NCBI GenBank assembly: GCA_029054245.1
Contig: JAIDFQ010000004.1
Coordinates: 1-64,000 of the forward strand
Source: Lachnospiraceae bacterium
GTDB taxonomy: Bacteria; Bacillota; Clostridia; Lachnospirales; Lachnospiraceae
Direction: 5' to 3'
Length of the DNA: 64,000 bases
Positions 5,787 to 63,837 of this stretch are shown here, piece after piece (position 1 is the first letter of the stretch; every line of letters begins with the position of its first letter). A program made the position numbers and the translations under genes. Below the pieces are notes generated by a model that was given only the letters and a program-made list of their open reading frames with translations, was not told the origin of the DNA and did not search any database.

Positions 5787-5789
5787 GGC

Positions 5790-10920: not shown

Positions 10921-10947
10921 TCCTGATAGGGTTCAGCCTTACAACTA

Positions 10948-12372: not shown

Positions 12373-12400
12373 ATGATTTCCTTATTCATTCCTGTCATTT

Positions 12401-13156: not shown

Positions 13157-13234
13157 TTTCCAGCCTCCTTCTATCCACTTGTATTTATATCCATATCTTT
13201 TCTTTGTATTCGCTATTTGATATTCACTGCCACT

Positions 13235-16141: not shown

Positions 16142-16266
16142 TGATCTGCTGATATCTTGAAAACAGAAAAAACTTTTTACATTATCAGCATATTCAAAAG
16201 ACTTGGTTTTGTCAACCGGATTTTAAAATTTGTCATGTTGGAATTATGATTATTTTTCCGCTGGTC

Positions 16267-16746: not shown

Positions 16747-16793
16747 AAAAACTCCTTTTATAACTGTTCATCCTTAAAAGGCACTTATGTTTT

Positions 16794-17224
16794 TTACAAA
16801 TCTTCTGCCTTATATACAGCATAACCTTCATAATAATAACTGTGGTCAATGCCTTTCATGTAGATTTCTCTATCGTCAGTCTTATCCGTCAATGCCTGTC
16901 TTAAAATGTGCTTTATTTCAATATCTTTTATCGGGCTTCTTTCCATTGCCAATAGATAATCATCTTTATCGATCAAACGCCAATCAACCACAAGATTCAA
17001 TTCTCTTTTCAGCATTAAATCAAGCCATATTCTTGCACTGCGTCCATTACCTTCACGAAATGGATGAATAATATTCATTTCTACATACTTCTCAATGATT
17101 TCCTCAAAAGTTGATTGCAGCATCTTTTCAACATTTTCAATTGCTGGCTGTAAATACATAACTGGCGCAAATCTGAAATTACCTTTTGCAAGATTGACAT
17201 CTCTTACTTTTCCTGCAAAATCAT
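16794..17224 (-). pseudogene. Fic-domain protein remnant, N-terminus missing
   Basis: The readable part encodes the C-terminal two thirds of a small Fic protein (AMP-transferase fold), with the catalytic loop [14 protein letters not shown] intact. Fic homology continues upstream of the only ATG (17159) as [21 protein letters not shown], back to an in-frame TAA at about 17223-17225. Beyond it only a few residues in another frame look Fic-like, and the normal 50-60 N-terminal residues are gone. The ROK gene begins 50 bases away, so the junction may be a deletion or insertion point. I regard it as inactive, although a 121-residue product starting at 17159 is possible. Confidence 0.75.
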
Positions 17225-17272
17225 ATTACTTGGTGCAATCTTCGTTCATTTTCTTTCATGAATATATCCTAA

Positions 17273-18469: not shown

Positions 18470-18482
18470 TGTAAAATTCCTC

Positions 18483-19958: not shown

Positions 19959-19976
19959 ATTAACCTTTCCTTTCCA

Positions 19977-21332: not shown

Positions 21333-21368
21333 ACAAAATTCCTCTTTCCATTTATCCGTCCATCAGGA

Positions 21369-22331: not shown

Positions 22332-23820
22332 TCATACTACCTCCTGTTGCGTAAGCCATAATATTTTCCTGATCAAACGAATCCCTTTCAAATCTTTTCA
22401 CTATTTTCCCGTTGCGAACCACATAAACAACATCACTCATATTTACTATTTCAGGCAGTTCAGATGATATAAGGATGATAGCCATACCCCTGCAGACGAG
22501 TTCATTCATGATTCTGTAAATTTCCTGTTTTGCTCCAACATCTATCCCCCGTGTTGGCTCATCTAATATCAAAAGAGAAGGATTTGTCGCAATCCATTTT
22601 GACAATAAAACTTTTTGCTGGTTTCCGCCACTTAGGGAAGATACCAATGTATCAATAGAAGCTGTTTTTATAGAAAAATCTTTAATCGCCTGTTCTACTA
22701 TGCCCACTGATTTTTTTCGATTAATTATCTCAAATTTTGTTAAGTTCTTAATACATGCAAGACAAATATTATAGGATACCGAACTAGACAAAACCAGCCC
22801 CAGCTTTTTTCTGTCCTCCGGCACCATACCCAAACCGGCGTGTATGGCATCCCTGGTATTTTTCCATGCTGATTTTTTTCCTTTAAAAAAAATCTCCCCC
22901 TGGTCAGATCGCATATCTCCAAACACAGTTCGCATAATCTCGCTGCGTCCGGCTCCTACCAATCCGGAAAAACCGACAATTTCGCCAGCGCGTACCTCAA
23001 AAGAAATATCTTCAAAATATCCCTTTTTAGAGAGTTCACTTACCCTTAGGATAACTTCTCCCGGCTCCTTATAATCCTTTACATAAAATGATTCCATACT
23101 CCTTCCGACCATCAGCTTAACCAGTTCATCCTGCTTTGCTGCCGCTGTTTCTACCGTTGCCACACTCTCACCATCCCGCATAATCGTAATCCGGTCGGTC
23201 ACCTTATACAACTCGTCAAAACGATGTGAAATATATATCATACCAACGTTTTTCTCTTTAAGTCTGCCCATTAGTTCAAATAAACTGGTCACCTCCTCAT
23301 CAGACAAAGATGAGGTAGGCTCATCCAATACGAGAATTTTCACATCAAAAGACACTGCCTTTACAATCTCAATCAACTGCTGCTGTCCAATGGCTAAATC
23401 CTTCACAAGCGATGCTGCATCTAGATTAATATGTAAATTGTCAAGCATCTTCTGAGCCGTTTCCACTTCCCGTTTATAATCGATATATCCTTTTTTATTT
23501 CGAAGTTCACGCCCTAGGAATATGTTTTCAGCTATTGTCAAGTTCTGGACAAGAAAAATTTCCTGATGGATAATCCCAATACCTTCTTTACGTGCATCTG
23601 CTACACATCCAATATTAGCCACTTTCCCATTTACCCAGATTTCTCCTTCATCCGGCTTATGAATGCCTCCCAAAACCTTTATTAATGTTGATTTTCCTGC
23701 CCCATTTTCTCCAAGAAGTGCATGGATTTCACCGGCATTTAAATCAAAACTTATATTATAGAGCGCCCTTGTATTTCCGAAGGTCTTTGTTATGCCCTTC
23801 ATCTGCAATATTGTTTCCAT
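22324..23820 (-). CDS. Sugar ABC transporter ATP-binding protein, RbsA/MglA type
   Basis: A 498-residue protein with two tandem ABC domains. Domain one has GENGAGKSTLIKVLGG and LVLDEPTSSLSDEEV; domain two has GLVGAGRSE in place of a full Walker A, LSGGNQQKVLLSKW and LILDEPTRGIDVGAKQEIY. The degenerate second Walker A is normal for this family. It energises uptake with the RbsC-type permease and the lipoprotein at 23954-25000. Confidence 0.94.
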   Translation of the reverse strand: METILQMKGITKTFGNTRALYNISFDLNAGEIHALLGENGAGKSTLIKVLGGIHKPDEGEIWVNGKVANIGCVADARKEGIGIIHQEIFLVQNLTIAENIFLGRELRNKKGYIDYKREVETAQKMLDNLHINLDAASLVKDLAIGQQQLIEIVKAVSFDVKILVLDEPTSSLSDEEVTSLFELMGRLKEKNVGMIYISHRFDELYKVTDRITIMRDGESVATVETAAAKQDELVKLMVGRSMESFYVKDYKEPGEVILRVSELSKKGYFEDISFEVRAGEIVGFSGLVGAGRSEIMRTVFGDMRSDQGEIFFKGKKSAWKNTRDAIHAGLGMVPEDRKKLGLVLSSSVSYNICLACIKNLTKFEIINRKKSVGIVEQAIKDFSIKTASIDTLVSSLSGGNQQKVLLSKWIATNPSLLILDEPTRGIDVGAKQEIYRIMNELVCRGMAIILISSELPEIVNMSDVVYVVRNGKIVKRFERDSFDQENIMAYATGGSMNE

Positions 23821-23881
23821 AACCAGCGTCTCCTTCTCCTTCCATCATAATTCCCATCATCTAACATAATTCACTCTTTAT

Positions 23882-23924
23882 AAGGAAGAAGGGTTTCCTT
23901 TTCAGAGGGATCCCCTTCTGCCTT
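23882..23924 (-). terminator. Intercistronic hairpin after the binding-protein gene
   Basis: Arms AAGGAAGAAGGG and CCCTTCTGCCTT pair with one mismatch around a 19-base loop. No long U-run follows. It lies between the binding-protein stop codon and the ATPase start, where such stems commonly stabilise the upstream message or reduce read-through so that the binding protein is made in excess. Confidence 0.6.
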
Positions 23925-23953
23925 TATCCTAATTCATCTATCTTTCTGAACAA

Positions 23954-25000
23954 TTACTGCCAACTATCAACAGTGGCTTCCGCCTCTTCTTTTGATACGA
24001 TGTGGGAATCCAAATAAATCTCTGTTTCATCTAAACTTTCCCCATTCAATAGTTTCGGAAGTAATTCAAGCGCCTTCTCTGCTTCCTGAATCGGGACCTG
24101 CGCTGCCAAACATTTCAGTTGTCCGTCTAAAAAGGCAGCTTTATCATCCGGAGATGCATCCACACAATAAATCGCAATATCACCATTTTGATATCCTGCA
24201 GCAGCAGCTGCTGAAGAAACCCCAAGACCTGACGGTCCGTTTACACAAAAGAATACATCAATGTCTGGATTGGCAGTAATAATGTCCTCTGCACATTTCA
24301 TAGACGCATCCAGTGCAGATTCTCCATCCTGCTGCGCAACAATTTCATATTTAGGGTCTGTTCCCAGCCCTTCCATGAATCCATTTACCCTGTCACATGC
24401 GCTTTCATTCCAAGGTGTATCAAGAATCGCGATTTTGGCCCCATCCGGATAATCTGCCACACACTGTTGACCAAGCAAAACACCTGCTTTATAGCAATCG
24501 GTTGTAATAAATAAATCAATAAATTCCATATCTTCATCCGCCACAGCCGTGTCTATATTCACAATCTTTATACCTGCATCTTTAAAATTTTGCAGACCAT
24601 CGCGAATACCTGCGGAATCTACAGGAATTACTATAACTGCATCATAACCGACTGTAACGGCATCTGCCATCTGATTCAGCTGGGTATTCAAATCATAATC
24701 AGAATCATAACAAGTATATTCCCATCCAAATTTCTCACAGCCATTTTTTAGCGTTTCGTCAATGCAAACCTGAAAAGTATTGTTCATCGTATTCGGAAAA
24801 TAAGCCACTTTATACGTTTCTTGAGAAGCATCTTCTGTCTTAACCTTATCTTCTGAACCCTCAGGTATGTCCGCAACTTCTTCAGACACGGATTCTACTG
24901 CTTCTTTTGACGCGTCATCCGTTTTTGCATCCGTTCCGCATCCTATCATACTTAAACTTACTACAGCTATTAGCGCAAGACTCAATATTCTTTTTTTCAT
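23954..25000 (-). CDS. Sugar ABC transporter substrate-binding lipoprotein, RbsB type
   Basis: A 348-residue lipoprotein (signal ending MIGCG, cysteine at residue 21), then an acidic linker of about 40 residues and a periplasmic-binding-protein fold of the ribose/galactose group: YKVAYFPNTMNNTFQ, GYDAVIVIPVDSAGIRDGLQNFKDAGIKIVNID, and AAAAGYQNGDIAIYCVDASPD. It is the first gene of the sugar operon. The bound sugar is unknown; the kinase and hydrolase downstream point to a ketose or a fructoside-type compound. Confidence 0.92.
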   Translation of the reverse strand: MKKRILSLALIAVVSLSMIGCGTDAKTDDASKEAVESVSEEVADIPEGSEDKVKTEDASQETYKVAYFPNTMNNTFQVCIDETLKNGCEKFGWEYTCYDSDYDLNTQLNQMADAVTVGYDAVIVIPVDSAGIRDGLQNFKDAGIKIVNIDTAVADEDMEFIDLFITTDCYKAGVLLGQQCVADYPDGAKIAILDTPWNESACDRVNGFMEGLGTDPKYEIVAQQDGESALDASMKCAEDIITANPDIDVFFCVNGPSGLGVSSAAAAAGYQNGDIAIYCVDASPDDKAAFLDGQLKCLAAQVPIQEAEKALELLPKLLNGESLDETEIYLDSHIVSKEEAEATVDSWQ

Positions 25001-25065
25001 AGCGTTCCTCCATTTAGAATTAGTTTCTGCATCTTTTGTTTTGGTATATACCTTTGAACAGCTTA

Positions 25066-25094
25066 ATCATAACACGCTTTTATTTTAATTTCAA
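25066..25094 (-). promoter_or_regulatory. Promoter of the sugar operon
   Basis: On the minus strand TTGAAA (25089-25094) and TATGAT (25066-25071) are 17 bp apart. The start point would be about 60 bases before the binding-protein gene. A perfect palindrome lies 10 bases upstream of the -35 box. Confidence 0.7.
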
Positions 25095-25104
25095 TTTATT
25101 TTTC

Positions 25105-25130
25105 AATTGAATTTATTAATAAATTCAATT
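25105..25130. promoter_or_regulatory. 26-bp perfect palindrome, candidate ROK operator
   Basis: The 26 bases read identically on both strands, with the core TTTATTAATAAA and outer AATTGAA/TTCAATT. A further half-like copy (TTCAATTTATT) lies at about 25091-25101, overlapping the -35 box. ROK repressors of the XylR group bind AT-rich palindromes of this kind. Binding by the ROK protein encoded at the end of the operon is inferred. Confidence 0.65.
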
Positions 25131-25228
25131 TTATTTATATTAAACAATCAGCCACTACTGTTTTTAGTAAAAAGTCACAACCACTCCCACATATCGGTCT
25201 TCAAAACGAACAGAGTACACCAAAAAGA

Positions 25229-25252
25229 GCCACGGATTTTATAAATCCTGGC
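25229..25252 (-). terminator. Rho-independent terminator of the 25308-25787 gene
   Basis: On the minus strand the stem GCCAGGATTT/AAATCCGTGGC is followed by CTCTTTTTGG. It separates the small gene at 25308-25787 from the sugar operon promoter. The whole 25001-25307 gap is thus explained by a promoter, a palindrome and this hairpin. Confidence 0.7.
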
Positions 25253-25307
25253 CCTATTTCGTATGCAGCGGATAAGCCGCCGTTAAAATGTATCTTTTTG
25301 TTTCCAA

Positions 25308-25787
25308 CTATACAGAAATTGAAAAATCAGCAGCCTGCTCTGTCCGGCTCACCTCTCCTGCCTTCGTATACATCACCGGTTCCCTGTCGATATCGCCCTC
25401 TGCTTTTGGAGCATTGATATTACCTAAATCTGTATTCTCTTTCAGCAGCTTCTTCCCCTCCTCGCTCACCTCTACCGTATCCGCTTCCCGGCATTCTTGT
25501 GTTTTTTCTTCAAATTTTTTCTGTTCTTCCTTGCGTTCATTAATCGCCTTTTCGCACTCTGCCTTTGCTTTTTCCCTTGCTTGTTCTGCCTCCTCTTTCA
25601 TTCCTTCATCCGCCTGCGCCTTATAATCATCTGCCTGATCTGATAATTCGCAGGCATAACCCATTGCCCTTTCCATGGTCGCCGTATCACCTTTATACCT
25701 TGCTTCCTTGTAAACCCTCATAGGCGTATTAACTAAATCCATATTCGTTCTAGCTCCTACAAGACCTTCCATCGTTTTCGCATGCAT
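25308..25787 (-). CDS. Hypothetical charged helical protein
   Basis: A 159-residue soluble protein of no recognised family. Residues about 55-105 are rich in Lys, Glu and Gln and should form a long helix or coiled coil; the C-terminal 30 residues look unstructured. There is no signal peptide. AAGGAGG stands at a good distance before the ATG. It lies just downstream of the sensor kinase gene in the same direction and might be co-transcribed with it. No function is proposed. Confidence 0.6.
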   Translation of the reverse strand: MHAKTMEGLVGARTNMDLVNTPMRVYKEARYKGDTATMERAMGYACELSDQADDYKAQADEGMKEEAEQAREKAKAECEKAINERKEEQKKFEEKTQECREADTVEVSEEGKKLLKENTDLGNINAPKAEGDIDREPVMYTKAGEVSRTEQAADFSISV

Positions 25788-25873
25788 CCTATAGCCTCCT
25801 TATCTATCTCTTAAAGTGGGTTTCATAACGCTTCTGTTTCTATCTCTTTTTTCGGAAATCTGAACAGCTCCTG

Positions 25874-27283
25874 TTAGCTTCCTGTTTCAAACAGGCTTTT
25901 TGCCGTCATATCCGGCACATCCATCGGCAGCAGAAGCGAAGCCACAAAAATGCCATCCTGCGCTTCTACGTTCATCACACCATGATATCTTTGCACTACA
26001 TCACTGACATTCAACAAACCAATGCCATACCCTTTAAAATCCTCCTTATTGCTAAATCCGGTTTTAAATTGTTCCGTCTTGTCTACACTGTTCTTGACCT
26101 CTAACAAAAAAAACTTCTTTACTCTTTTCGCTTGCACGCTGATAAAATAAGCTTCACTGTCATACATATTACGGAACATCATTCTTTCACATGCTTCTAC
26201 CGCATTGTCCAATATATTTCCAAACAATACACATAAATCAAACTCATTTATGCCGCATTTTGGAGGTATGTACACCTCACAATCCCACTTGATCTTTTTT
26301 GCTTCAGCTTCTTTTCGTTTTTGATACAAAAGTGCGTCCACTGCCTTGTTCCCTGACATTTCCTCATAAGCGTCAAAACTGCCGCTTTCACGCATATTGC
26401 TTATATAGTTACGTATTTTTCCCCATTCCTTATTTTCCACCAATCCCGACAGCACAATCAAATGATTTTTCAGGTCATGCCTTAACCTTTCCTGCTGGCT
26501 GTACTGCTGCTCCAACATTTTGTAAGCCATAATCTGTGCATGATAGTGACTGCTTTTTTCCTGTTCTAAATAAATTCTATCCATTCCAAATATATAGACC
26601 CCTGCTGCAAACATAGACAGCGCTGTCAGAACACCGATTCCTATATAGCTGAAAATCTGATCGTAGTATAGATTAAAGTTTCCTCCGCTCCTTAGCAATA
26701 TGCCCTTGCTTGCCCCCCACTTTGCAATATCAAACACTACTATGATTACAAGCAGAGGAATGGCTAACATAAGATACCACTTTCTTTTCTTGCCATAAAA
26801 AACAGACGCAAGATGCTTTGACATCCAATATACGCCCCCTATCACCACAAAATAACCAAAATAGGCAATTGCGAAACTTGCCCCTTCATCTACAACAGGT
26901 TCCGCAACATTCTTTGCCGTATGCATAAAAAGCAAAACTGCACAAGACAAAAGTGATTCGCAAAATGCCTTCAACAATGTAGTAACTAAAATCAGCAGGG
27001 AAGAGGCAAACAATTTTTTCTCCTGCTCCGCCAAAAACAGCGCCTGAACCAGCATGATAAAAAAGATTTGTTCAACAAATGCGAACACAATATAGGGAAC
27101 AGAATCATAATTACATACAAAAGAAATTGTTATCCAGCCGCACAAAAAAAAGCCCCAAAACAATGCCTCATTTCTTCTTGAAATCTTCAAATAGCTTTTG
27201 CAAAATTTAGCTGTAGCCCATATCGTTCCCAAACAGCATGGCAGCATGACCAAAATCCATTTAAAATCTGAAATCTGTTTCAT
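25874..27283 (-). CDS. AgrC-type sensor histidine kinase (GHKL ATPase)
   Basis: About 469 residues. Six or seven hydrophobic segments fill the first 215 residues, followed by the phosphoacceptor region RLRHDLKNHLIVLSGL (H-box His of the AgrC/HPK10 group) and a GHKL ATPase with NILDNAVEAC and GYGIGLLNV. This architecture senses peptides or other extracellular signals in Gram-positives. The ATG at 27283 overlaps the regulator stop codon by 4 bases (ATGA); an in-frame ATG 45 bases upstream lies inside the regulator gene. No AgrB/AgrD-like peptide genes are visible nearby, so the signal is unknown. Confidence 0.9.
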   Translation of the reverse strand: MKQISDFKWILVMLPCCLGTIWATAKFCKSYLKISRRNEALFWGFFLCGWITISFVCNYDSVPYIVFAFVEQIFFIMLVQALFLAEQEKKLFASSLLILVTTLLKAFCESLLSCAVLLFMHTAKNVAEPVVDEGASFAIAYFGYFVVIGGVYWMSKHLASVFYGKKRKWYLMLAIPLLVIIVVFDIAKWGASKGILLRSGGNFNLYYDQIFSYIGIGVLTALSMFAAGVYIFGMDRIYLEQEKSSHYHAQIMAYKMLEQQYSQQERLRHDLKNHLIVLSGLVENKEWGKIRNYISNMRESGSFDAYEEMSGNKAVDALLYQKRKEAEAKKIKWDCEVYIPPKCGINEFDLCVLFGNILDNAVEACERMMFRNMYDSEAYFISVQAKRVKKFFLLEVKNSVDKTEQFKTGFSNKEDFKGYGIGLLNVSDVVQRYHGVMNVEAQDGIFVASLLLPMDVPDMTAKSLFETGS

Positions 27284-27996
27284 AATAGTTCTCCGCTCTC
27301 TTTCATAAATTTCAGCATTTCTTTGCAAAATTCCTCATATCTTCTTTTTGCAATCATGATCCTCTCGCCGTTTTCCAAAATGACCTCCTGCCTGTTATAT
27401 CCATCCACATATTTCAAATTAACAAGATAGCTTTTGTGACACCGGAAAAAGCCTTTTTCCTGCAGGCGGTTTTCTAAAATACCAATCTGCTCATAGTATG
27501 CAAAAATACCCTCTGCACCATGTATGTCAACCACCCGCCCCTTAATCTCAAAGTAATAAATGTCATCCAGGTACAACTTCTTTTTCTGCCTTTCCTTACT
27601 GACGATCATAAATTCCTGTGAGCAGTTCTTCATTTTAAGCACTGCCTTTTCCAGAACCCTTCTAAGCTTTCTGTCATCAACGGGTTTTAGCAGGTAATAG
27701 AACGCCTCCACATCATATGCATCAAATACATATTCTCTGCTGGAAGAGACAAAAATAAGTATCTTATCAAATGCTCTTTTTCTGAAAATCTGCGCGGTTT
27801 TCATTCCATCCAATTCACACATGATGATATCCAGAAAAACAATATCAAAATTTTCAACTGCCAAAAGCAGTTCCTGCCCGCTGCCGAACTGCCGTATAAT
27901 GTAAGATACTTTCATATCATCCAAAATTTCTTTCACTTTTCTTTCCATATTACAACGCTCTATGACCTCATCATCGCACACTGCTATTGACAACAT
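27280..27996 (-). CDS. LytTR-family response regulator
   Basis: A 238-residue regulator with a receiver domain (IAVCDDE, phosphoacceptor Asp in IVFLDIIM, Lys in LLKPVDD) and a C-terminal LytTR DNA-binding domain (YYFEIKGRVVDIHG, GFFRCHKSYLVNLKYV, NGERIMIAKRRY). The start at 27996 (MLSIAVCDDE) is preferred over an ATG 81 bases upstream because the receiver begins there and AGGTG precedes it. It partners the kinase encoded directly downstream. Its targets cannot be read here. Confidence 0.92.
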   Translation of the reverse strand: MLSIAVCDDEVIERCNMERKVKEILDDMKVSYIIRQFGSGQELLLAVENFDIVFLDIIMCELDGMKTAQIFRKRAFDKILIFVSSSREYVFDAYDVEAFYYLLKPVDDRKLRRVLEKAVLKMKNCSQEFMIVSKERQKKKLYLDDIYYFEIKGRVVDIHGAEGIFAYYEQIGILENRLQEKGFFRCHKSYLVNLKYVDGYNRQEVILENGERIMIAKRRYEEFCKEMLKFMKESGELL

Positions 27997-28107
27997 TTTA
28001 AACACCTGCCTTCTATGGAATATATTATATATCGGCGCAAAGGTAATCATCGTTTTATTTATGTCATGAACGGACATTTAAAAGTGATAACCGCAGATAA
28101 ACCTCAG

Positions 28108-55017: not shown

Positions 55018-55644
55018 TTACTCTAATCCCAGCGCTTCCTTTGCCAGCTGGTCTGCCATATCATTATACTTATTATTAGAATGACTCGTTACCTTTATGA
55101 ATTTTATTTTTACCTGCTGACTGATTTTGTCATAAAAAGCCTTGTATGCCTTGGTGCCGTCTTTGTTCGCCTTCCACGCGCCCAGACACCACTTGGCAAT
55201 TCCCTCATAATCATGATAAATCTCTATCTCTTTCAGGTGATGATCTGCCGCATACTGCATTGCTGCTTCCGCACCCTTTATTTCACCTGCCACATTGTGC
55301 ATCGATGCCAGATCCTCATCATCAAATTTACGGCTGTATTTCTCTTCACCATTTTCCCCAAGCACCACCATACCGTAAGAAAATTCTTTCGCCGCACTGT
55401 TGTAACTTCCATCTACATATATTTTAACACACTCTCCCTCCTTCCAACCATCTTTTTGCCCAGAAATATCATCTGGTTCCTCTTCTACATATTCAATGCC
55501 CAGATAAGCACATGCATCAGCTTTCGTTTTGAAGCTTTTGAACTCAGCGCCGGGATAGCCGCTTACATTAATCCTGCATTCCTCCCAAGTCCTGAAAATT
55601 CCCCTCTGCATTCCTACCTTGACCGCATAATATTTTTCAGCCAT
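55018..55644 (-). CDS. rnhA: Ribonuclease HI with N-terminal hybrid-binding domain
   Basis: A 208-residue protein. Residues 1-50 match the small hybrid-binding (viroplasmin-like) domain (YYAVKVGMQRGIFRTWEECRINVSGYPGAEFKSF in parts). From about 70 the RNase H fold has its acidic residues in KIYVDGSYN, EIKGAEAAM, IYHDYEGI and KYNDMADQLAKEAL. It degrades RNA in RNA-DNA hybrids. Confidence 0.92.
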   Translation of the reverse strand: MAEKYYAVKVGMQRGIFRTWEECRINVSGYPGAEFKSFKTKADACAYLGIEYVEEEPDDISGQKDGWKEGECVKIYVDGSYNSAAKEFSYGMVVLGENGEEKYSRKFDDEDLASMHNVAGEIKGAEAAMQYAADHHLKEIEIYHDYEGIAKWCLGAWKANKDGTKAYKAFYDKISQQVKIKFIKVTSHSNNKYNDMADQLAKEALGLE

Positions 55645-55832
55645 GAAATACCTCCCTGTGGCGGACTTTATTAAAAATTAACAAATTTATTCTACCACAC
55701 AATTCCAATGTTTACTATCTTAATAAAACAAGTTACAGCATTTATAACCTGCACCGCACAATATAACTGCGCGATGCCTTACACTTTACAGGAATGCATC
55801 CATGTTCGTATAATAAAACTGTAAAAGGGGTT

Positions 55833-55864
55833 AACGGCGACGGTCTTTCGAGACCGCCGCCGTT
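55833..55864. terminator. Strong GC-rich hairpin, probable terminator
   Basis: Arms AACGGCG-CGGTCT and AGACCG-CGCCGTT pair over 13 bases. On the minus strand it follows the lectin-type gene and is succeeded by AACCCCTTTTAC; on the plus strand by TCGTTCTTT. The rest of 55645-55882 shows only AT-rich DNA. Confidence 0.65.
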
Positions 55865-55882
55865 TCGTTCTTTAACCATTTT

Positions 55883-56824
55883 TTATTCTTCATATTCACA
55901 AATATATCCTACCGTCCCTGAATAAAACTCCGCAATCGCAATCAAATCATCTGGGACATCATTCCAGACCCAGCGCCCTTCCTTGCTGACATAAAACATA
56001 TTCATATACATTTCGTCCTGTGATATAGTTGCATCATAAAAACTCGGTTCCCCAGTCAACCAGTAAGAGGCATATGGCTCATCTCGGTTTAAAACTGCGC
56101 TTCCATATGTTCCATCCTCATAAATCCAGCGGTATTCATACGCATCATCCGTGCTTCTTTTACCACCCAGCCAGAACTTGACGTTACCCTTATCTTCCTC
56201 TTCAATCTGCTGCAGAATTGCCTGATACTCTTCCTCAGAATTAATTCTAACCAGATGTCCTCCTCTTACAAGACAGTAATTATACGCATCCGTCCATGTA
56301 ACATCCGCAACGATCAGCTCATAAGTATTGACTTTCCCGTCATCCTCTTCATTATATACCGGTTCCGTATCCTTCGTTCCTTCCTCTGCCTCTGGCATTG
56401 CCTCGGTTTCCGGTGCTGTCTCCTTTTGCTGCGTATCGTTATCTTCTTTCTCGCCTTTTTCCGAACCGCTTCCTTCCTCATCCGCTTCGTCTGGTTCTTC
56501 CAGCTCCCGCTTAGTTTCTTCCGCATCAACATCGGTATAAAGACTATCCTGATTTAACTTATACACAAAGATTCCTCCGCCTACTCCGCCAGCTAAAAGG
56601 ATAAAAAGGCACAGCATCAGAATACCTAAAACTTTCTTTCCTCCCTTTTTCTTTCCGCTTCGCTGCGCATCCATCATCTCGGAAGTGGATGCATAAATCG
56701 GTTCCCCCCTGCTCCCACCAATATCAGCAGCCGGATTTTGATTCTGTGTTTTTACAGGCGTACCGCAGTTTCCGCAAAATGCAGCGCCATCGCTTAATTG
56801 TTGTCCACATTTTTTACAATACAT
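55883..56824 (-). CDS. Zinc-ribbon membrane protein with extracellular C-type lectin domain
   Basis: A 313-residue protein with three clear parts. Residues 3-20 are a zinc ribbon (C3, C6, C17, C20) placed in the cytoplasm. Residues 66-88 are a membrane helix, followed by an acidic linker (100-165). Residues 168-311 form a C-type lectin fold: VTWTDAYNYC (C184), GGHLVRINSEEEY, FWLGG, the calcium/sugar motif EPS (259-261), WND (287-289) and GYICEYE (C309). It overlaps the upstream permease gene by 31 bases. Bacterial lectin-type domains are rare; binding of a glycan or protein ligand is inferred. Confidence 0.85.
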   Translation of the reverse strand: MYCKKCGQQLSDGAAFCGNCGTPVKTQNQNPAADIGGSRGEPIYASTSEMMDAQRSGKKKGGKKVLGILMLCLFILLAGGVGGGIFVYKLNQDSLYTDVDAEETKRELEEPDEADEEGSGSEKGEKEDNDTQQKETAPETEAMPEAEEGTKDTEPVYNEEDDGKVNTYELIVADVTWTDAYNYCLVRGGHLVRINSEEEYQAILQQIEEEDKGNVKFWLGGKRSTDDAYEYRWIYEDGTYGSAVLNRDEPYASYWLTGEPSFYDATISQDEMYMNMFYVSKEGRWVWNDVPDDLIAIAEFYSGTVGYICEYEE

Positions 56825-57996
56825 TGCTTTTTCCTCTGTCTATTTTTATTTTCCGCCAATATAGGCATAATCTTATTCTTCCATGCAGAAATCAGAACAC
56901 ATAGCATAAACAGTACCCCTATATAAACCGCCATTCCATACAAATGATAGGTACTGTGGATGGATTTCAGATAACAATATGGAGGCAGAAGATACGGGAA
57001 AACACCAAAATGCCTGCTATTGAGAAACACTGGGCACATCACCAACATCCCCATCAGCAAAATCGGTATGCAGGCTCCCAAACGTTCTGGTGTGTAACAC
57101 AAAAGTCTTACCAAATTACAAAACACAATGGTACATCCTGTAAATAAAAGAATCGCGCCTATCTCCCTTTGCCACGAGGTGAATATGCCTGCCAGTTTAA
57201 ATGCCGCCAGCATCACCACCGCCGCATCTGATAAAACCACTGCATGCATGCCAAACGCTGCCCACAGCCTGCTTTTCAGCGCAACTTTTGAAAAAACACC
57301 ATTCTTCTCATCCTGCATAAAATACATGGAGCCTGCAAACCCGCATAATACAAACCATAGAGCAAGAATCCCCCTGATCGGCGTCAACAGATAATTATAA
57401 TCATCCATCTCTTCCCTTTGTCCATCCAGATATTCCATTTGAAAAAGACTGCCTTCCACGAACATCTTTTCATAACTCGCCTTAAATTCTGCATCGCTTA
57501 CTTCTAAAAGTCCCATATCGTCTCTGATAAAATCCTCATAAACGATGTAAGAAAAATCCGAATATATCTTACCGGTCAAGATCTGCCTGGTAAATCTTAA
57601 GGGCACATTGTCTTCCCGCTCCACCACAGTCACGACTGGTTCACACCTTTTATCAGCAGCTGCCTTTTGCAAATCACTTTTAAAATTTTCAGAAAAAAGC
57701 CATGCACTGTCCACTTCATAATCTATTACCAGCCTCCGAGCCTCCTCTTCTTCCTCGCAAAGCACATAGCTTAAGACACTGTCCTTTTCCATCAGTTCAT
57801 CAACAATCCCTGCTGCCAGCTCATCCTCCGGGTTCTTCAGGCATAAAGCAATACGTACAATTCCACTCTCCTCCTGCGACAGAAGATTCATTCCTCCCAC
57901 CAGTCCCGGCACCAGACAAAGAATCACCAGAAAGCTGTATTTTTTGAACAATCGTTTATTCAGAAGAAAATACCTTTTCAAGATTTGACCTATCAT
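56794..57996 (-). CDS. ABC-2 type exporter permease (second of a pair)
   Basis: A 400-residue membrane protein: one N-terminal helix (about 20-40), an extracellular domain of about 170 residues, and five or six helices from about 215 onward (ALWFVLCGFAGSMYFMQ, the YTPERLGACIPILLMGMLV stretch). This is the ABC2_membrane_3 layout. It pairs with the permease at 58001-59242 and the ATPase at 59243-59911. The substrate is unknown. Confidence 0.85.
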   Translation of the reverse strand: MIGQILKRYFLLNKRLFKKYSFLVILCLVPGLVGGMNLLSQEESGIVRIALCLKNPEDELAAGIVDELMEKDSVLSYVLCEEEEEARRLVIDYEVDSAWLFSENFKSDLQKAAADKRCEPVVTVVEREDNVPLRFTRQILTGKIYSDFSYIVYEDFIRDDMGLLEVSDAEFKASYEKMFVEGSLFQMEYLDGQREEMDDYNYLLTPIRGILALWFVLCGFAGSMYFMQDEKNGVFSKVALKSRLWAAFGMHAVVLSDAAVVMLAAFKLAGIFTSWQREIGAILLFTGCTIVFCNLVRLLCYTPERLGACIPILLMGMLVMCPVFLNSRHFGVFPYLLPPYCYLKSIHSTYHLYGMAVYIGVLFMLCVLISAWKNKIMPILAENKNRQRKKQCIVKNVDNN

Positions 57997-58000
57997 TGCC

Positions 58001-59242
58001 TCAACCTCTCTGTATCCTGCTTCTTCTGATGCCTACAGACATCAGAAGAAAACATACTAGATAAAGCAGTACGCCCAGTGCTTGTGGTAAAGCAACCTCT
58101 CCTATCATACAGCCGTCTGTATACCGAAGGGCGACTCCCGTAGGCAAAAGCATCCCGATCTTCTGAACCGTATCAGGGAAAAAGCTTGCCGGATAGAAAA
58201 AACCTGATAAATATCCCATGCTGATACTGCATATAAACTGCAATAAAAGACTACTGACGATTCCCGTCACCAGCTCATAAATCAGAAACTGCATCGCGGT
58301 AAGCATAAACGCCACAGGAAGAATTCTAAATAGAAATGCCAGAAGAGGTCTGATTCCCCCCTCTTCCCATTCTGCAATCTGGAAAGCGCCGCTTCCCATC
58401 ACAACAGCAAGCACCAAAAAAATCTCCAAAACACATGCCAGCATAAGACACACATATGCCAGATATTCTCCTGCCACCTGTCCTGCCGCTCCTACACCTC
58501 TCGCTTTTAAGACGCCAGCCAGCTCCCTGCTTTTCCGCGAAAATAGCGGGCTGTTATTGATACCGGATAAAAGCATAAAAAAAATCATGATACTACAAAA
58601 ATAATATCCTTCCGTAGATAAGCCGTTCGCCATACCCAGAATTTCCAGATTACAAAACTTCCTTCTGCCAAGCACAAGATCAAGATAACGGAGATTTAGC
58701 TTTTCTGTTGCCTCCCACAATCCCTCCGTCTTTCCATGCTCCTGCAAAATGCTTTGCATTCCGTAAATACCGCTCTGCGTACGGGTCACAATGTTGGAAA
58801 CCACATCTACGACTTCATTCATAACGATACTGCCAATTCCTTTTTGCCCTTCTGCTGCAACATAGGTAACCGGACGGTCATTCGCACCGCTTTCTATAGA
58901 TTCCACTAATCCGTCAGGTATACGCACAAAAGCATACAATTCTCCCTTCCGAAATGCCTTCCTTGCCTCCTCCTCACTCATGCCGGTCAATTCAATCACA
59001 AATCTGGAATCATCAACAGCCTGTAGTGTGCTGATACCGAATCCCATGTATGAATCTGTCATATCTCCTACGATACCAATCTGATATTTCTGCGTACCGG
59101 ACGATAATAAACCATCTTGTATAAAGTAAACCGCCAATACTCCTACACATGTACACACGAGAAAATTGACCAAAAGCTGTATTGGAAGTATTTTGAACAC
59201 GCGCTTTAACTGCATGCGAAAATAAAAATAACCCCTGTTCAT
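58001..59242 (-). CDS. ABC-2 type exporter permease (first of a pair)
   Basis: A 413-residue membrane protein with the same layout as its neighbour: N-terminal helix (about 18-42), an extracellular domain, and six C-terminal helices with a 'GYLSGFFYPASFFPDTVQKIGMLLP' loop typical of ABC-2 permeases. Its start codon directly follows the ATPase stop codon. The two permeases presumably form a heterodimer. Confidence 0.88.
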   Translation of the reverse strand: MNRGYFYFRMQLKRVFKILPIQLLVNFLVCTCVGVLAVYFIQDGLLSSGTQKYQIGIVGDMTDSYMGFGISTLQAVDDSRFVIELTGMSEEEARKAFRKGELYAFVRIPDGLVESIESGANDRPVTYVAAEGQKGIGSIVMNEVVDVVSNIVTRTQSGIYGMQSILQEHGKTEGLWEATEKLNLRYLDLVLGRRKFCNLEILGMANGLSTEGYYFCSIMIFFMLLSGINNSPLFSRKSRELAGVLKARGVGAAGQVAGEYLAYVCLMLACVLEIFLVLAVVMGSGAFQIAEWEEGGIRPLLAFLFRILPVAFMLTAMQFLIYELVTGIVSSLLLQFICSISMGYLSGFFYPASFFPDTVQKIGMLLPTGVALRYTDGCMIGEVALPQALGVLLYLVCFLLMSVGIRRSRIQRG

Positions 59243-59911
59243 TTACAAATTACCTGCCAGACGATGGATATCACCATCATATTGATAAGGAGATAGCAGT
59301 CCCTGCTTCAAAATACAGCATTGATCGCACAATTCCAGCTCCTGTGTATCATGCGTTGTCAAAAGGACGATTCCTCCTTCTTTTTTGTATTGCTTTAGGT
59401 ACTGATAGATATGTTCCTTACAAACAAGATCCAATGCCGTGGAAGGCTCATCCAACAGCAGAATCTTAGGTCTTGCCGCCACAGTGCATCCAATGGACAG
59501 ACGCTTCTTCATACCTCCAGACATCTTGCCTACCGGCACCTTTAAAAAGCTGTCGATTCCCAGCATGGAAAGAACTCCATCAGCAAGTTCCTTCCGAATG
59601 GTACCCTTGTCATACCACATACGCAAGTTGTCCCATGCATTAAGTTCCTCTATCAAAGGATTGCCCTGCGGCACATATCCCAGCACACTGTTTCGTCTTG
59701 TGCCATTTTCCAGCAGATTCTCCCCCTGATAAAGGAAAGCGCCTGCATCTGCCCTCTGCACACCTGCCAGAATTGAGAGCAGCGTGGATTTTCCGCATCC
59801 GTTTCCGCCTAAAATGCCCACGCAGCTTCCCTCTTCCACCTTTAACGACACGCCTTCAAGCACTGTTTTATGTCTATAGGATTTTTGTATACCAATCAGT
59901 TCTATCGCCAT
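59243..59911 (-). CDS. ABC-2 exporter ATP-binding protein
   Basis: A compact 222-residue ATPase. Walker A GGNGCGKSTLL, signature MSGGMKKRLSIG, Walker B ILLLDEPSTALD and H-loop TTHDTQELE are present. It has the size of the CcmA/NatA exporter class. It lies between the large zinc-ribbon protein and the two permeases, and is the energiser of the cluster. Confidence 0.93.
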   Translation of the reverse strand: MAIELIGIQKSYRHKTVLEGVSLKVEEGSCVGILGGNGCGKSTLLSILAGVQRADAGAFLYQGENLLENGTRRNSVLGYVPQGNPLIEELNAWDNLRMWYDKGTIRKELADGVLSMLGIDSFLKVPVGKMSGGMKKRLSIGCTVAARPKILLLDEPSTALDLVCKEHIYQYLKQYKKEGGIVLLTTHDTQELELCDQCCILKQGLLSPYQYDGDIHRLAGNL

Positions 59912-59946
59912 AAGGCATGTTCTCCTACATTTCAGGATATTTTTTA

Positions 59947-61860
59947 CTAATAATACATTCTATCTAATAAGTATAAAGCATCATAGAGATCTTCTAAATC
60001 TTCTACTCCATCTAGCGAATCTGTAATCTTTGATGGGATATCCGCTTTTTTCAGGGAATTAATCAGATTATTTAGCTTAACACCCTCAAGCCACCTTTCA
60101 AGGTCATCTTCGTCTTCCATCATAATCGTATTATTCCCAGAAGGAATCGTTGCCTTTGACCCATTACCAGTCTTGATGGATACCGCCAGGCTTCCAATAT
60201 CCTGGTCCTCATAGACAAATCCTATCTTACAGGAAGACGCATTCTTGGAAGATTCAAAATCCATATTTATCTGCATCTCCTCAATAATGGATAATCCAGG
60301 TACAGAACCGATAATACTGCCAATTTTAGATGCCGCCTTCACTTCAATTCTTCCATTCATCCTGCCATCCTTAAGCTCCTCTATGTCCAGCTTCTTGGTG
60401 ACAATCTCAATCAGAGAAGCGCCATTATATTTCACCTGAAAATCCCCGCTTATTTTATCGCCGCTCGTCTTTCCGCTGCCAGTAAGCTTCACCGTCATCC
60501 CATAAACTTCTCCTGAAAATTCATAACCGAATTTATTTCCTTTTTCAGGCATCAGACTTCTGACAGACGCATATCCCAGATCAATGCTTCTTCCCTTAAT
60601 CTCTCCTTTGCCATCCACATAGACTTTCATGACGACATCGCTTTCTAAATAAGAAAGATATTCCAGCTCGTCCAGCATATCATCAATCATATCCTGGAAT
60701 TCCTCATAAGCATCATCAAAATCCACATTTTCATCCACTGCTTCACTGCTTGCCTCAAGCACGCTCTTCATAATCGCCTTGATTTCTTTATCATCTCTCA
60801 TTTCTGTCAGGACCGCTTCCGCCATATCCTGCAAAGTGTCGGCGTCGAGAGTCACTTTCAAAACCGTGCACTTTTGCTCAATGCCTTCCACTTTAAGAAC
60901 CTCTTTGCTCTTAGACACATCATCGACACATTCAAGCGCCAGCAGCATATAGCGCTTTAACAGCTTCTCTACCTTTGCCTGGTCTGGGTATGCCCGCAGC
61001 ATTTTCCTGTTGACCTCTTGAAATTCTGCCAGCAGATCCGAATCATAACTGCCATACCCCTCTTCTGCCATATCTATTCCCAGGTAGGTTTTGTTCAGCT
61101 CTGGAATCTGGAAATATGCCACTCCCTTTTTCATATCCATTTTCAGATTGCCTGAGAGGATATCACTGCCATTAAGTGAAAGAAAGCTGCCAACCGCAAC
61201 AGTATCGTCTTTGACAGCGGTATCAACGCCAATAACCATGCTCTCAAGCCATGACACATCCACTCCTGCGAGCCCTAAAAGCCCTACGAATTCCTGTCCG
61301 TCTTCTCCCAACTCAAGTGCAAGTTCTCCCTCAACACTTTTATTGTAAAAATTCAGCGAATCCAGCACATAACTGTCATACCAGTATCCCGCATGTTCCG
61401 CCAATTCTTCCACTGTTTTCTTTTCTACAAACTGATAATATTTCTCTGGTGAAGAAAATGTTCTATGTAGAAAATTGTTGATTCTAGCACCATTTGCAAC
61501 CAGAAGCACCAACACTGCTGCCGCTGCTATGCATGCAATAAGAAGTACCTTTTTTGTGCTTCCATTCTGACCATCAGAACCCGAACCGCCGATTTTCCCC
61601 AAAAACGCTTTTCCCTTTTCTGCAACATTCCCCAGTGCATCTGTTACCGCCTTAGCTGTCCCATCCATTTTACTGCCTGACCCACCAGACGTTCCCTGTG
61701 CCGTATTCCCTGCATTGATTCCAGGCATGGACATAATAGGCGGAATCGGCTGATTTTTCTGCTCAGGCACCGTCTGATTCGCCGTTTTTAAAGTTGCACC
61801 ACACTTAGGGCAGAATGCTGCCCCGTCATTTATTTCGCTCCCACATTTTTTACAAAACAT
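59947..61860 (-). CDS. Zinc-ribbon membrane protein with large extracellular domain
   Basis: About 637 residues. The N-terminal zinc ribbon (C3, C6, C17, C20: MFCKKCGSEINDGAAFCPKC) is followed by a Pro/Gly-rich linker, a membrane helix (about 104-125) and some 500 residues of extracellular domain with beta-rich stretches and an acidic helix (EEFQDMIDDMLDELEYL). I do not recognise that domain. The start at 61860 is chosen because the ribbon begins there and GAGGGAGA precedes it. The ribbon is close to that of the lectin protein at 55883, showing that both belong to one system. Confidence 0.8.
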   Translation of the reverse strand: MFCKKCGSEINDGAAFCPKCGATLKTANQTVPEQKNQPIPPIMSMPGINAGNTAQGTSGGSGSKMDGTAKAVTDALGNVAEKGKAFLGKIGGSGSDGQNGSTKKVLLIACIAAAAVLVLLVANGARINNFLHRTFSSPEKYYQFVEKKTVEELAEHAGYWYDSYVLDSLNFYNKSVEGELALELGEDGQEFVGLLGLAGVDVSWLESMVIGVDTAVKDDTVAVGSFLSLNGSDILSGNLKMDMKKGVAYFQIPELNKTYLGIDMAEEGYGSYDSDLLAEFQEVNRKMLRAYPDQAKVEKLLKRYMLLALECVDDVSKSKEVLKVEGIEQKCTVLKVTLDADTLQDMAEAVLTEMRDDKEIKAIMKSVLEASSEAVDENVDFDDAYEEFQDMIDDMLDELEYLSYLESDVVMKVYVDGKGEIKGRSIDLGYASVRSLMPEKGNKFGYEFSGEVYGMTVKLTGSGKTSGDKISGDFQVKYNGASLIEIVTKKLDIEELKDGRMNGRIEVKAASKIGSIIGSVPGLSIIEEMQINMDFESSKNASSCKIGFVYEDQDIGSLAVSIKTGNGSKATIPSGNNTIMMEDEDDLERWLEGVKLNNLINSLKKADIPSKITDSLDGVEDLEDLYDALYLLDRMYY

Positions 61861-61885
61861 CCCTCTCTCCCTCTCTATCTGAAAA

Positions 61886-62317
61886 TCATTCCACTTTTGT
61901 TCCACAAGAAGCACAGAATACACTGTCCTCATCCAATACCGCACCACATTTTTTACATTTTGCTTCATTCGGATTTACGATCGGTACTGTATTTTCCTGC
62001 TTTTCATCCACTTTTCCGCCGCAGACATTACAGAACATACTTCCATAAGGTATAACGGATCCGCAATTTTCACACATCATCTGTCCTTCCAGACGAAGTT
62101 TGTTCTGGTAGAAACTCTTTCTGTTCATACTCAGTTTATTGATCAAATCTATCTGCGTAAAATACTTTTCCTCAATATCTGCGTTATTTTTATTGTCCTC
62201 ATAGAACATCTGCCCCAACTGGAAAATCTTCTGCTGCAGTTCTCCCTCTACCTGCGCTATATTTTCCATCACTCTGTCCATTTCAGTGGGTGTCTTTGTG
62301 TTATTCAAGAATTTCAT
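61886..62317 (-). CDS. Small soluble protein with two C-terminal zinc ribbons
   Basis: A 143-residue protein. The first 80 residues are helical (MDRVMENIAQVEGELQQKIFQLG in parts) and hydrophilic; two zinc ribbons follow, CENCG..CNVCG and CKKCG..CASCG. There is no membrane segment. It is the first gene of the zinc-ribbon/ABC-2 cluster and ends 25 bases before the large zinc-ribbon gene. A cytoplasmic regulator or adaptor to the other ribbons is possible. Confidence 0.8.
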   Translation of the reverse strand: MKFLNNTKTPTEMDRVMENIAQVEGELQQKIFQLGQMFYEDNKNNADIEEKYFTQIDLINKLSMNRKSFYQNKLRLEGQMMCENCGSVIPYGSMFCNVCGGKVDEKQENTVPIVNPNEAKCKKCGAVLDEDSVFCASCGTKVE

Positions 62318-62365
62318 TTCTCTGCCTCCCTGCTCTTCTTATTGTACAATTTGCACTTAATATTC

Positions 62366-62395
62366 ATTCTACCATAAAAAACGCTAAATCGACAA
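62366..62395 (-). promoter_or_regulatory. Promoter of the zinc-ribbon/ABC-2 cluster
   Basis: TTGTCG (62390-62395) and TAGAAT (62366-62371) are 18 bp apart on the minus strand, about 50 bases before the first gene. Confidence 0.55.
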
Positions 62396-62507
62396 TATTC
62401 TTTAATACTTTCTTGTAAATTTTTAGGAAAATTAAAAAAAGGAAATGTGGTTGTGCCATTTTGCATGATTTTTTCAACATCTACATATAATAGGACCGGT
62501 GATATTT

Positions 62508-63053
62508 ATGAATGAATTAAAAAAAGAAATGATAAAAGGAATCCTTTTTGTTTCAATCGTTGGCACACTTTGCCACTTTGTCTACGAATGGTCCGGCAAA
62601 AACCCCATTGCAGGACTTTTCTTTCCTGTTAATGAATCCACTTGGGAGCACATGAAGCTGCTCTTTTTCCCCATGCTTCTCTATGCTCTTTATATGTATA
62701 AAAAACAACGGATGCCACGCTACGCGAGCCATCCTTATGTTAAATTAAAGGATGCATATCCCTGCATCCTTTCAGCACTTTTATATGGTATATTGACGGG
62801 CACATTTCTGATACCCGTATTATTTTATACTTACAAGGGCATTCTGGGGCGCGATTACATTGCGCTTGATATTGCTGTGTTCCTTGGAAGTGTGATCCTG
62901 GCATTTTGGACCGTATACAAATTCACCTTATCCTGTAAATCAAACGCTCTGCTCCCACTTCTCAAGGCAGCCGTCTTTGCCCTGGCAGTATGCTTTCTGG
63001 TTTTTACTTATTATCCGCCTGCTATTGGTCTTTTTGCTGTTCCTGGCAAATAG
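62508..63053 (+). CDS. Hypothetical membrane protein (DUF6512-like)
   Basis: A 181-residue protein with five or six hydrophobic helices and the conserved opening 'TLCHFVYEWSG..IAGLFFPVNESTWEHMKLLFFP', which I associate with the DUF6512 family of Firmicutes. The ATG at 62508 follows GGTGATATTT; a GTG three codons upstream is an alternative. It lies on the plus strand between two minus-strand genes of the cluster and converges on the 63062 gene. Function unknown. Confidence 0.75.
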   Translation: MNELKKEMIKGILFVSIVGTLCHFVYEWSGKNPIAGLFFPVNESTWEHMKLLFFPMLLYALYMYKKQRMPRYASHPYVKLKDAYPCILSALLYGILTGTFLIPVLFYTYKGILGRDYIALDIAVFLGSVILAFWTVYKFTLSCKSNALLPLLKAAVFALAVCFLVFTYYPPAIGLFAVPGK

Positions 63054-63061
63054 CAGCACGA

Positions 63062-63745
63062 CTATTCGCTTTCACCGCCTGCCGGGTTCTTCAGGCTTTC
63101 TACCGTATGCTTAAAATTCTCATCCACCATTTGCATAAGTTTAATATGGAAATCTATTTTGAGCAGCTTTTCATCTACATCTAAATAATCTGTTCCATTT
63201 TCTTCAAATGCATTCATTAACTCGGCAACATTTTTTACATTATCATATAATCCTTTAATTTCAGAAATGACAGGCAACATACTCGCTGGCAGATCAGCCA
63301 AATTACTGAGCAGCATTTTAATAATTTTTTCCCAATCTTTAAAATCGCGGCTGACAGCCTGCATAAAGCTTCCAATCGAAAGATTTAACGCGCTGTCACC
63401 CAAATCATCTAATGCACATAATGCCTCGTATGTACTCTTGACATTCTCAAATAGAACAGACGCCATCTTTTTATCTTCTATTTCATCAACTGCTTTTAAA
63501 GACTCATGGAGATAATTGCTGGTTCTTTCTCTGTCATCCTTTATCACCGCAAGATGCAGCTGTAAGTACTCTGCAAATGTCACCGATAGATTAACATAGG
63601 CGGCAAGTTCTTCATTCAACAATTTGAAAAGAGTCGCAGACTTCACCTTGTCTCTCTGCCTTAATAAATCCTCGTAAATTTTGTTTGTTGCTTCCATCTT
63701 CGATCTAAAATCTTCCATCATTTCATTTTGATCTTTCGTACCCAT
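63062..63745 (-). CDS. Hypothetical all-helical protein
   Basis: About 227 residues, highly charged and predicted nearly all alpha-helical, with no signal peptide, membrane segment or cysteine motif. The start at 63745 follows AAGGGG. It stands apart from the zinc-ribbon cluster by the plus-strand gene. Length and helix pattern are compatible with a coiled-coil or effector-like protein; no family is recognised. Confidence 0.65.
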   Translation of the reverse strand: MGTKDQNEMMEDFRSKMEATNKIYEDLLRQRDKVKSATLFKLLNEELAAYVNLSVTFAEYLQLHLAVIKDDRERTSNYLHESLKAVDEIEDKKMASVLFENVKSTYEALCALDDLGDSALNLSIGSFMQAVSRDFKDWEKIIKMLLSNLADLPASMLPVISEIKGLYDNVKNVAELMNAFEENGTDYLDVDEKLLKIDFHIKLMQMVDENFKHTVESLKNPAGGESE

Positions 63746-63837
63746 GTTTTCCCCTTTCACATATACTTGTCTTCTGAACACAAATAAGATACTTATAATT
63801 TGTCTTATCATTCGTACTCGTTGTTAGAAACAAAATA

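What the first reader, a model, noticed from the sequence alone, without database searches (positions are those of the whole stretch)
55883..62317. Three zinc-ribbon proteins with an ABC-2 exporter and a C-type lectin domain
Two membrane proteins share almost the same N-terminal cytoplasmic zinc ribbon but have different outer domains (a lectin fold with EPS and WND motifs, and an unknown 500-residue domain). A soluble double-ribbon protein starts the operon and an ABC-2 exporter with two permeases lies in the middle. The shared ribbons suggest one assembly or signalling complex joining export with recognition of an outside ligand. I know of no described system of this form.
Basis: partly seen in the sequence, partly recalled or inferred. 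Interest (0 to 1): 0.75.

Follow-up and report, generated by a model that had tools for sequence, protein, structure and literature searches.

The report
Zinc-ribbon-tethered ABC exporter operon
A bacterial genome carries an ABC exporter paired with a membrane-anchored outer domain bearing a small cytoplasmic zinc ribbon; the pairing recurs in related and more distant bacteria and was found under no family name, while the lectin that drew attention looks like a local add-on.

Summary
The six genes are real and lie at the stated coordinates. The core is a four-gene exporter: a ribbon-tailed, single-pass protein ("E") with a ~500-residue outer domain that matches no Pfam or NCBIfam family, an ATPase, and two ABC2_membrane_3 permeases. 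The core recurs. In a sample not chosen for E, 32 of 50 homologous permease places have an E relative in the module or divergent beside it. The order E-ATPase-perm1-perm2, with a ribbon on E, recurs in six loci outside the window's order. The rest of the proposed complex is local. Among relatives searched, the lectin lies beside the exporter only in the window and one sister genome; elsewhere the second ribbon protein has TPR plus YD-like repeats, or DUF1307. Ribbons are generic in this genome, and the two membrane ribbons match at 9 of 18 non-Cys positions, which is not exceptional. Even so, double-ribbon relatives of the first gene sit beside another ribbon ORF in 12 of 30 loci, against 2 of 85 control ORFs, so ribbon docking stays open. 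Most likely this is a LnrLMN-like exporter with an outer acceptor or sensor subunit for an envelope-active or lipid-like compound. The substrate is unknown.

The parts
61886..62317 (-). Soluble protein of 143 aa: N-terminal region that looks helical (by eye) and two C-terminal zinc ribbons (first gene of the operon)
   Evidence: Zn_Ribbon_1 39.9 bits, DZR 37.3 bits; relatives in 52 of 230 family genomes, own included; a 30% identical one in G010 directly before a ribbon membrane protein
59947..61860 (-). E protein, 637 aa: N-terminal zinc ribbon (61789-61857), one hydrophobic segment (about 61489-61554), unnamed outer domain
   Evidence: the longest ORF starts at 61968
59977..61476 (-). Outer domain of E: predicted antiparallel beta strands with helices, mean pLDDT 89.2, pTM 0.81
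   Evidence: 28 rows, A3; no Pfam/NCBIfam family; no convincing PDB fold match
59243..59911 (-). ABC exporter ATPase, 222 aa
   Evidence: PF00005 106.5 bits; best NCBIfam models drrA (145.5 bits) and NodI (125.3), both below their cut-offs
58001..59242 (-). Permease 1, 413 aa, ABC2_membrane_3
   Evidence: 61.6 bits, cut-off 31.6
56794..57996 (-). Permease 2, 400 aa, ABC2_membrane_3
   Evidence: 33.5 bits, cut-off 31.6
55883..56824 (-). Second ribbon-tailed membrane protein, 313 aa: ribbon (56753-56821), one hydrophobic segment, acidic linker, C-type lectin domain (about 55886-56329)
   Evidence: Lectin_C 31.0 bits, cut-off 22.6; overlaps permease 2 by 31 bases
62366..62395 (-). Promoter-like site before the first gene (TTGTCG-18-TAGAAT with TG before the second hexamer)
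   Evidence: consensus match only; 25 such sites found in the region against 15.7 (sd 5.0) in shuffles

Best explanation
The operon encodes a four-part ABC exporter. One ATPase serves two unlike ABC2_membrane_3 permeases, a build like that of LnrLMN. The fourth part, E, has a zinc ribbon in the cytoplasm, one membrane helix and a large outer beta-rich domain placed near the exporter. The most likely job is to move or extract an amphipathic compound, such as a lipid, an envelope-active antibiotic or an envelope precursor, out of the membrane. E would receive it or sense it and pass the state inward through helix and ribbon. The soluble double-ribbon protein and the lectin protein are lineage-specific additions that probably dock on the same cytoplasmic ribbon platform; the lectin would tie the site to a wall or host glycan. 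Shown here: gene content, conservation of the core, a confident model of E's outer domain. Inferred: topology (hydropathy only), a physical complex, direction of transport, substrate class, docking by ribbons.
For: Core conservation in a sample not selected for E: of 50 perm1 places, 28 have E on the same strand in the module and 4 have it divergent. From the E side, 12 of 30 E genes lie within 3.5 kb of a permease gene, and one more (G350) is split over two contig ends. Six loci outside the window's order, from four families, have E-ATPase-perm1-perm2 with a ribbon on E. The permease tree has the window on the 32-row side of a 100/99 branch, where 23 rows have a ribbon-tailed E; three labels need 9 changes against 31.1 in shuffles, though many rows were fetched because they encode E. 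E goes with the exporter in different gene orders (E-A-1-2, A-E-1-2, A-1-2-E), which speaks for function. The A-E-1-2 protein profile matches the E profile at probability 97.7%, E 2.1e-12, 269 columns, 10% identity. LnrLMN-like exporters have large outer domains (PMC11466899 passages) and LnrLMN gives resistance to linear polyenes (PMC7472640 passages). Ribbons CX2CX10CX2C bind zinc in L. lactis membrane proteins, one of them tied to wall integrity (PMC4628341).
Against: 18 of 50 perm1 places have no E nearby, among them G134 and G443, the sister pair of the window and G035 in the tree (G134's contig starts 627 bases before the ATPase). 17 of 30 E genes are not seen beside an exporter; two of these are cut by a contig end on the side where it would be. 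E shows a ribbon in only 9 of the 32 linked places, and eight of the 32 rest on the remote profile alone. No fold match supports a lipid pocket: best PDB hits nitrophorin 7 (E 1.5e-4, TM 0.21) and LprG (E 1.9e-3, TM 0.28); comparison with DUF6612 negative. LnrLMN gives no resistance to amphotericin or nystatin and was not itself compared with these permeases. No neighbour names a substrate.
Confidence: 0.5

Rival explanations
1. The ribbons are only stability caps of a large, generic class of membrane proteins; E is a loose exporter partner and the two other ribbon genes are accidental neighbours.
For: Ribbons occur in unrelated proteins of this genome. Ribbon similarity inside the operon is ordinary. 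E shows a ribbon in 9 of 32 linked places. Lectin and close double-ribbon orthologue are beside this exporter only in the window and G035 of the genomes searched. In L. lactis the cysteine-zinc complexes were very stable and a role in protein stability was suggested.
Against: Double-ribbon relatives lie beside other ribbon ORFs in 12 of 30 loci against 2 of 85 control ORFs (8 of 30 against 1 of 85 if the neighbour must have an N-terminal ribbon and a hydrophobic segment). Five genomes, not all independent, carry a second ribbon membrane protein beside E or the exporter, in four builds. Ribbon on E goes with exporter linkage.
Confidence: 0.3
2. The exporter is a sensor rather than a transporter: E (and in the window the lectin) reports wall damage or glycan, as Bce-type exporters report antimicrobial peptides.
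For: Outer domains are large. S. aureus TcaA, a ribbon protein encoded with an MFS exporter, belongs to an operon stimulated by glycopeptides (PMC10611510, one passage). L. lactis Llmg_0524 is linked to wall integrity (PMC4628341).
Against: No histidine kinase or response regulator is among the nine proteins scanned at 55018-63811. Permeases match ABC2_membrane_3, whereas Bce-type transporters have one ten-helix permease. LnrLMN was reported not to be needed for signalling linearmycins to its kinase.
Confidence: 0.25
3. The exporter serves surface-polymer modification, supplying or removing acyl or lipid intermediates.
For: A GDSL hydrolase gene lies 72 bases before the exporter in G443, and an MBOAT acyltransferase gene about 4 kb before it in G227; a similar MBOAT-like ORF is close to it in G635 (by eye).
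Against: Seen in two lineages only; the window's own neighbours (RNase H-like, DUF6512, and by eye a WecA/MraY-like ORF) do not point there.
Confidence: 0.15

Closest known systems
LnrLMN-type (hybrid type V/VI) ABC exporters of Bacillus subtilis
   Same: one ATPase and two permeases with large outer segments (build described in PMC11466899 passages; that LnrM/N are ABC2_membrane_3 proteins is recalled)
   Different: a separate ribbon-tailed single-pass outer-domain subunit; no two-component system among the nine proteins scanned around it; substrate unknown; no direct sequence comparison made
TcaA of Staphylococcus aureus (tcaRAB)
   Same: zinc ribbon, membrane helix, long outer chain, operon with an exporter
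   Different: the exporter there is MFS; NCBIfam TcaA model scores 11.4 of a 550 cut-off on the lectin protein and is not reported for E
Llmg_0524-0525-0526 operon of Lactococcus lactis
   Same: two CX2CX10CX2C membrane proteins in one operon, zinc shown
   Different: three-gene operon without an exporter gene; outer parts not compared here
C-type lectin domain (PF00059)
   Same: over the curated cut-off; two cysteines, WND present
   Different: EPS in place of EPN/QPD (motifs recalled); sugar binding unknown

Membership tests
ABC exporter of the LnrLMN build | one ATPase and two unlike ABC2_membrane_3 permeases in one operon (family label of LnrM/N recalled) | tested here: met
   A-1-2 kept in nearly all 61 modules listed
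ABC exporter of the LnrLMN build | sequence kinship with LnrL, LnrM and LnrN | not tested
   no B. subtilis sequences were compared
ABC exporter of the LnrLMN build | two-component system LnrJK-like beside it | tested here: not met
   nine proteins at 55018-63811 scanned against Pfam, no kinase or regulator
ABC exporter of the LnrLMN build | resistance to linear polyenes | not testable with these tools
   needs culture work
TcaA family | ribbon, one hydrophobic segment, outer chain | tested here: met
TcaA family | match to the NCBIfam TcaA model | tested here: not met
   P0006 11.4 bits against cut-off 550; P0002 no match at E 0.1
C-type lectin | Lectin_C profile over its cut-off | tested here: met
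   31.0 bits against 22.6
C-type lectin | calcium-site motifs EPN/QPD and WND (recalled) | tested here: inconclusive
   WND present, EPS in place of EPN
LolA/LprG-like lipid carriers (for E) | half-barrel fold with lipid pocket | tested here: inconclusive
   LprG third in Foldseek, E 1.9e-3, probability 0.98, TM 0.28; DUF6612 (LolA-like by recall) comparison negative
Bce-type exporters | single permease of ten helices | tested here: not met
   two separate permeases of ABC2_membrane_3 type, 5-6 hydrophobic segments each

The most novel reading that the evidence does not exclude
A new class of exporter in Clostridia in which outer-domain subunits are exchangeable and held to the transporter by cytoplasmic zinc ribbons, with a soluble double-ribbon protein as the clamp. 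Swapping the outer build (E alone, lectin, TPR plus YD-like repeats, DUF1307) retargets one conserved engine to different envelope or host ligands.
Probability: 0.2. Interest if true: 0.75.

Novelty: new variant of a known kind. Interest (0 to 1): 0.5.

Why it matters
It adds a conserved but unnamed subunit family to a type of exporter found in 49 of 397 sampled genomes of the window's family, and gives ribbon-tailed membrane proteins, common there and mostly unexplained, a testable partner. If E binds the exported compound or an envelope ligand, the substrate question becomes open to experiment.

Tried and rejected
Fold of E from the 5-row alignment: mean pLDDT 60.9, Foldseek headed by porins, set aside as noise. 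The 28-row model is good, but the 50 PDB matches listed have TM-scores of at most 0.31, so no fold name is claimed. LolA-like origin through DUF6612: profile comparison negative (only 4 DUF6612 rows); PF07161 found in 2 of 116 genomes of the order. Solved relatives of E or permease 1 by sequence: none credible. Ribbon similarity as proof of joint assembly: rejected, though favours the pair within this genome. Lectin as conserved partner: rejected. Neighbours as substrate clue: GDSL/MBOAT in two lineages, and a GdpP-like gene beside three systems (Pfam in G354; G028 and the own second system by eye). Literature: ribbon plus Lachnospiraceae plus ABC transporter plus lectin, 0 papers; wider searches gave only the precedents cited (listings read).

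Full report
WHAT IS THERE. Six genes on the minus strand fill 62317-55883: a 143-residue double-ribbon protein, a ribbon-tailed membrane protein (E), an ATPase, two permeases and a ribbon-tailed lectin protein. Pfam supports each at its curated cut-off except the outer domain of E, which has no family. The longest ORF for E (673 aa) starts inside the upstream gene. The likelier start is the ATG at 61860, after a purine-rich stretch, where the homologues L048 and L050 also begin; the protein is then 637 aa. Gaps between genes are 25, 35, 0, 4 and -31 bases, so co-transcription is likely but not shown. A promoter-like site lies before the first gene, a consensus match only.

ARE THE RIBBONS SPECIAL? 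Not as such. This genome has 9 Zn_Ribbon_1 matches at E 0.001, 8 over the cut-off, including a ribbon-TM protein with another outer domain, a ribbon on a small membrane protein, a ribbon pair at the end of a many-helix protein and a ribbon-TM-TPR-like protein (by eye). The ribbons of E and of the lectin protein agree at 9 of 18 non-Cys positions; 6.9% of 977 ribbon pairs from different loci reach 9 or more (the set of 45 ribbons includes homologous E proteins, which makes the background a little too similar). Four ribbons of other loci match the lectin's ribbon better, at 10 of 18.

WHAT IS CONSERVED. E's outer-domain profile (A2) finds 28 of 397 family genomes at E 1e-5. Permease 1 finds 49 of 397 genomes at E 1e-20, in 50 places. 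I fetched all 50 places (the window's own from the window) and labelled ORFs with profiles, the E profile after three rounds of iteration. E is in the module on the same strand in 28, divergent beside it in 4, absent in 18. Eight of those 32 rest on the remote profile ectoB alone, some with low scores (L195 29 bits, L173 34 bits), and one of the eight (L151) helped to build it. That profile matches the E profile at hhalign probability 97.7%, E 2.1e-12, over 269 columns at 10% identity. E bears a ribbon in 9 of the 32 (window, L050, L116, L117, L120, L124, L129, L186, and G350, whose ribbon end L122 and exporter end L148 lie on two contigs); L118 is cut before its N-terminus. Gene orders differ: E-A-1-2, A-E-1-2 and, in one genus, A-1-2-E.

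From the E side, one search gives 30 E genes. Twelve lie within 3.5 kb of a permease gene, 13 with G350. In G261 and G300 the contig ends just after E, so they cannot be judged; in G367 the exporter is further away. Ribbon-bearing E genes are linked in 8 of 10 judged cases and others in 5 of 18 (Fisher p 0.016; 0.007 without the cut L118), not corrected for kinship. At order level the deeper profile A3 finds 23 of 295 genomes; of 11 newly fetched, 8 have the whole module with a ribbon-tailed E, one a partial A-E-1, two none of these permeases. At class level it finds 19 of 245 genomes at E 1e-10; of the 18 besides the window I fetched the best 10: six have E-A-1-2 with a ribbon on E, one has E-A and then the contig ends, three have no exporter. 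These later sets were chosen for E and inflate its frequency.

A tree of 66 permease-1 proteins (midpoint root, for drawing only) puts the window with G035 (86% identical), then with G134/G443 (96/88), on one side of a 100/99 branch with 32 rows: 23 ribbon-tailed E, 6 other E, 3 without E. Labels need 9 changes against 31.1 in shuffles. So a ribbon-tailed E with this exporter looks old, with several losses or gains. In an unselected subset (rows only) this side has 16 rows, of which 8 have a ribbon-tailed E. G134 and G443 have no E; G134's contig starts close by, and G443 has a GDSL hydrolase gene there.

The window's own genome has a second system: E without a ribbon, ATPase and both permeases, between an ssb-like and a GdpP-like gene, both named by eye (locus L192). 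G028 (by eye) and G354 (Pfam) have a GdpP-like gene on the same side.

WHAT IS LOCAL. The lectin domain occurs in 9 of 98 relatives, own included. The window and G035 have it beside this exporter. In G069 and G087 it is fused to a ribbon and no exporter or E gene lies in about 7 kb each side. In the other five it sits in proteins without a ribbon, and no exporter or E gene is in the flanks held, at most 1.5 kb each side. In G035 the same gene is 784 aa with TPR, YD-like repeats (by eye) and the lectin end, which is 78% identical to the window's though its Lectin_C score of 20.6 is under the cut-off of 22.6. In G026 the second ribbon protein has TPR and an RHS_repeat match, in G261 TPR and YD-like repeats by eye, in G049 DUF1307. 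So a ribbon-tailed protein of changing build stands beside E or the exporter in five genomes; these are not five independent events.

The first gene: close orthologue in the window and G035, and a 30% relative in G010, in 60 relatives; in G010 it lies directly before a ribbon-TM protein without exporter. With a profile, relatives occur in 52 of 230 genomes, own included. Of the 30 loci returned and examined, 12 have another ribbon ORF on the same strand within 300 bases, 8 if that ORF must have an N-terminal ribbon and a hydrophobic segment; the window's own locus is counted as a miss because its ORFs overlap. Control: 2 and 1 of 85 ORFs of 100-300 aa in L173-L197. This is the best support for ribbon-ribbon teamwork, though the profile itself contains ribbons and some hits are not of the soluble type.

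HOW IT MAY WORK. ATPase and permeases have the build of LnrLMN (PMC11466899, passages; the family label of LnrM/N is recalled and no direct comparison was made). [quoted passage not shown] E adds a separate outer domain. Its model is confident (pLDDT 89.2, pTM 0.81, 28 rows): antiparallel strands with helices between. Foldseek gives nitrophorin 7 (TM 0.21) and LprG (TM 0.28, probability 0.98) among the best, which I do not take as homology. A lipid or amphipathic ligand is therefore an inference from the exporter type. Zinc binding by such ribbons, and a link of one such protein to wall integrity, are shown in L. lactis (PMC4628341, abstract and passages); deletion of the second gene there gave no clear phenotype. 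S. aureus has a ribbon protein in an operon with an MFS exporter (PMC10611510, one passage).

NOVELTY. The parts are known kinds. The pairing of a ribbon-tailed outer-domain subunit with a two-permease ABC exporter was not found in print by searches of one open-access library, which is weak evidence of absence. I call it a new variant of a known kind, interest 0.5. The window's class is called Clostridia from recall and from the Lachnospiraceae label of the one named relative.

Noticed in passing
L192 (G000:C40:17500-32500), 4753-9258: Second E-ATPase-perm1-perm2 system of the same genome, E without ribbon, between an ssb-like and a GdpP-like gene (by eye); a GdpP-like neighbour also in G028 (L188) and G354 (L153).
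   Followed up: partly
L049 (G026:C40:100001-119900), 6458-14101: Row of ribbon-tailed proteins on one strand (one scanned: ribbon and TPR), about 11 kb and more from the exporter locus of the same contig.
   Followed up: no
L054 (G049:C16:30000-49900): Ribbon-tailed proteins beside a ribbon-bearing ORF that looks like a kinase, a phosphatase-like ORF and WXG100-like small ORFs (all by eye), suggesting a type VII secretion setting.
   Followed up: no
L047:14157-16511: Ribbon-TM-TPR-YD-like-lectin protein of 784 aa; the window's 313-aa protein has only ribbon, TM, acidic linker and lectin, as if the middle had been lost or never gained.
   Followed up: partly
window 16001-28000: G+C of 37-41% against 42-49% in most of the rest of the window.
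   Followed up: no
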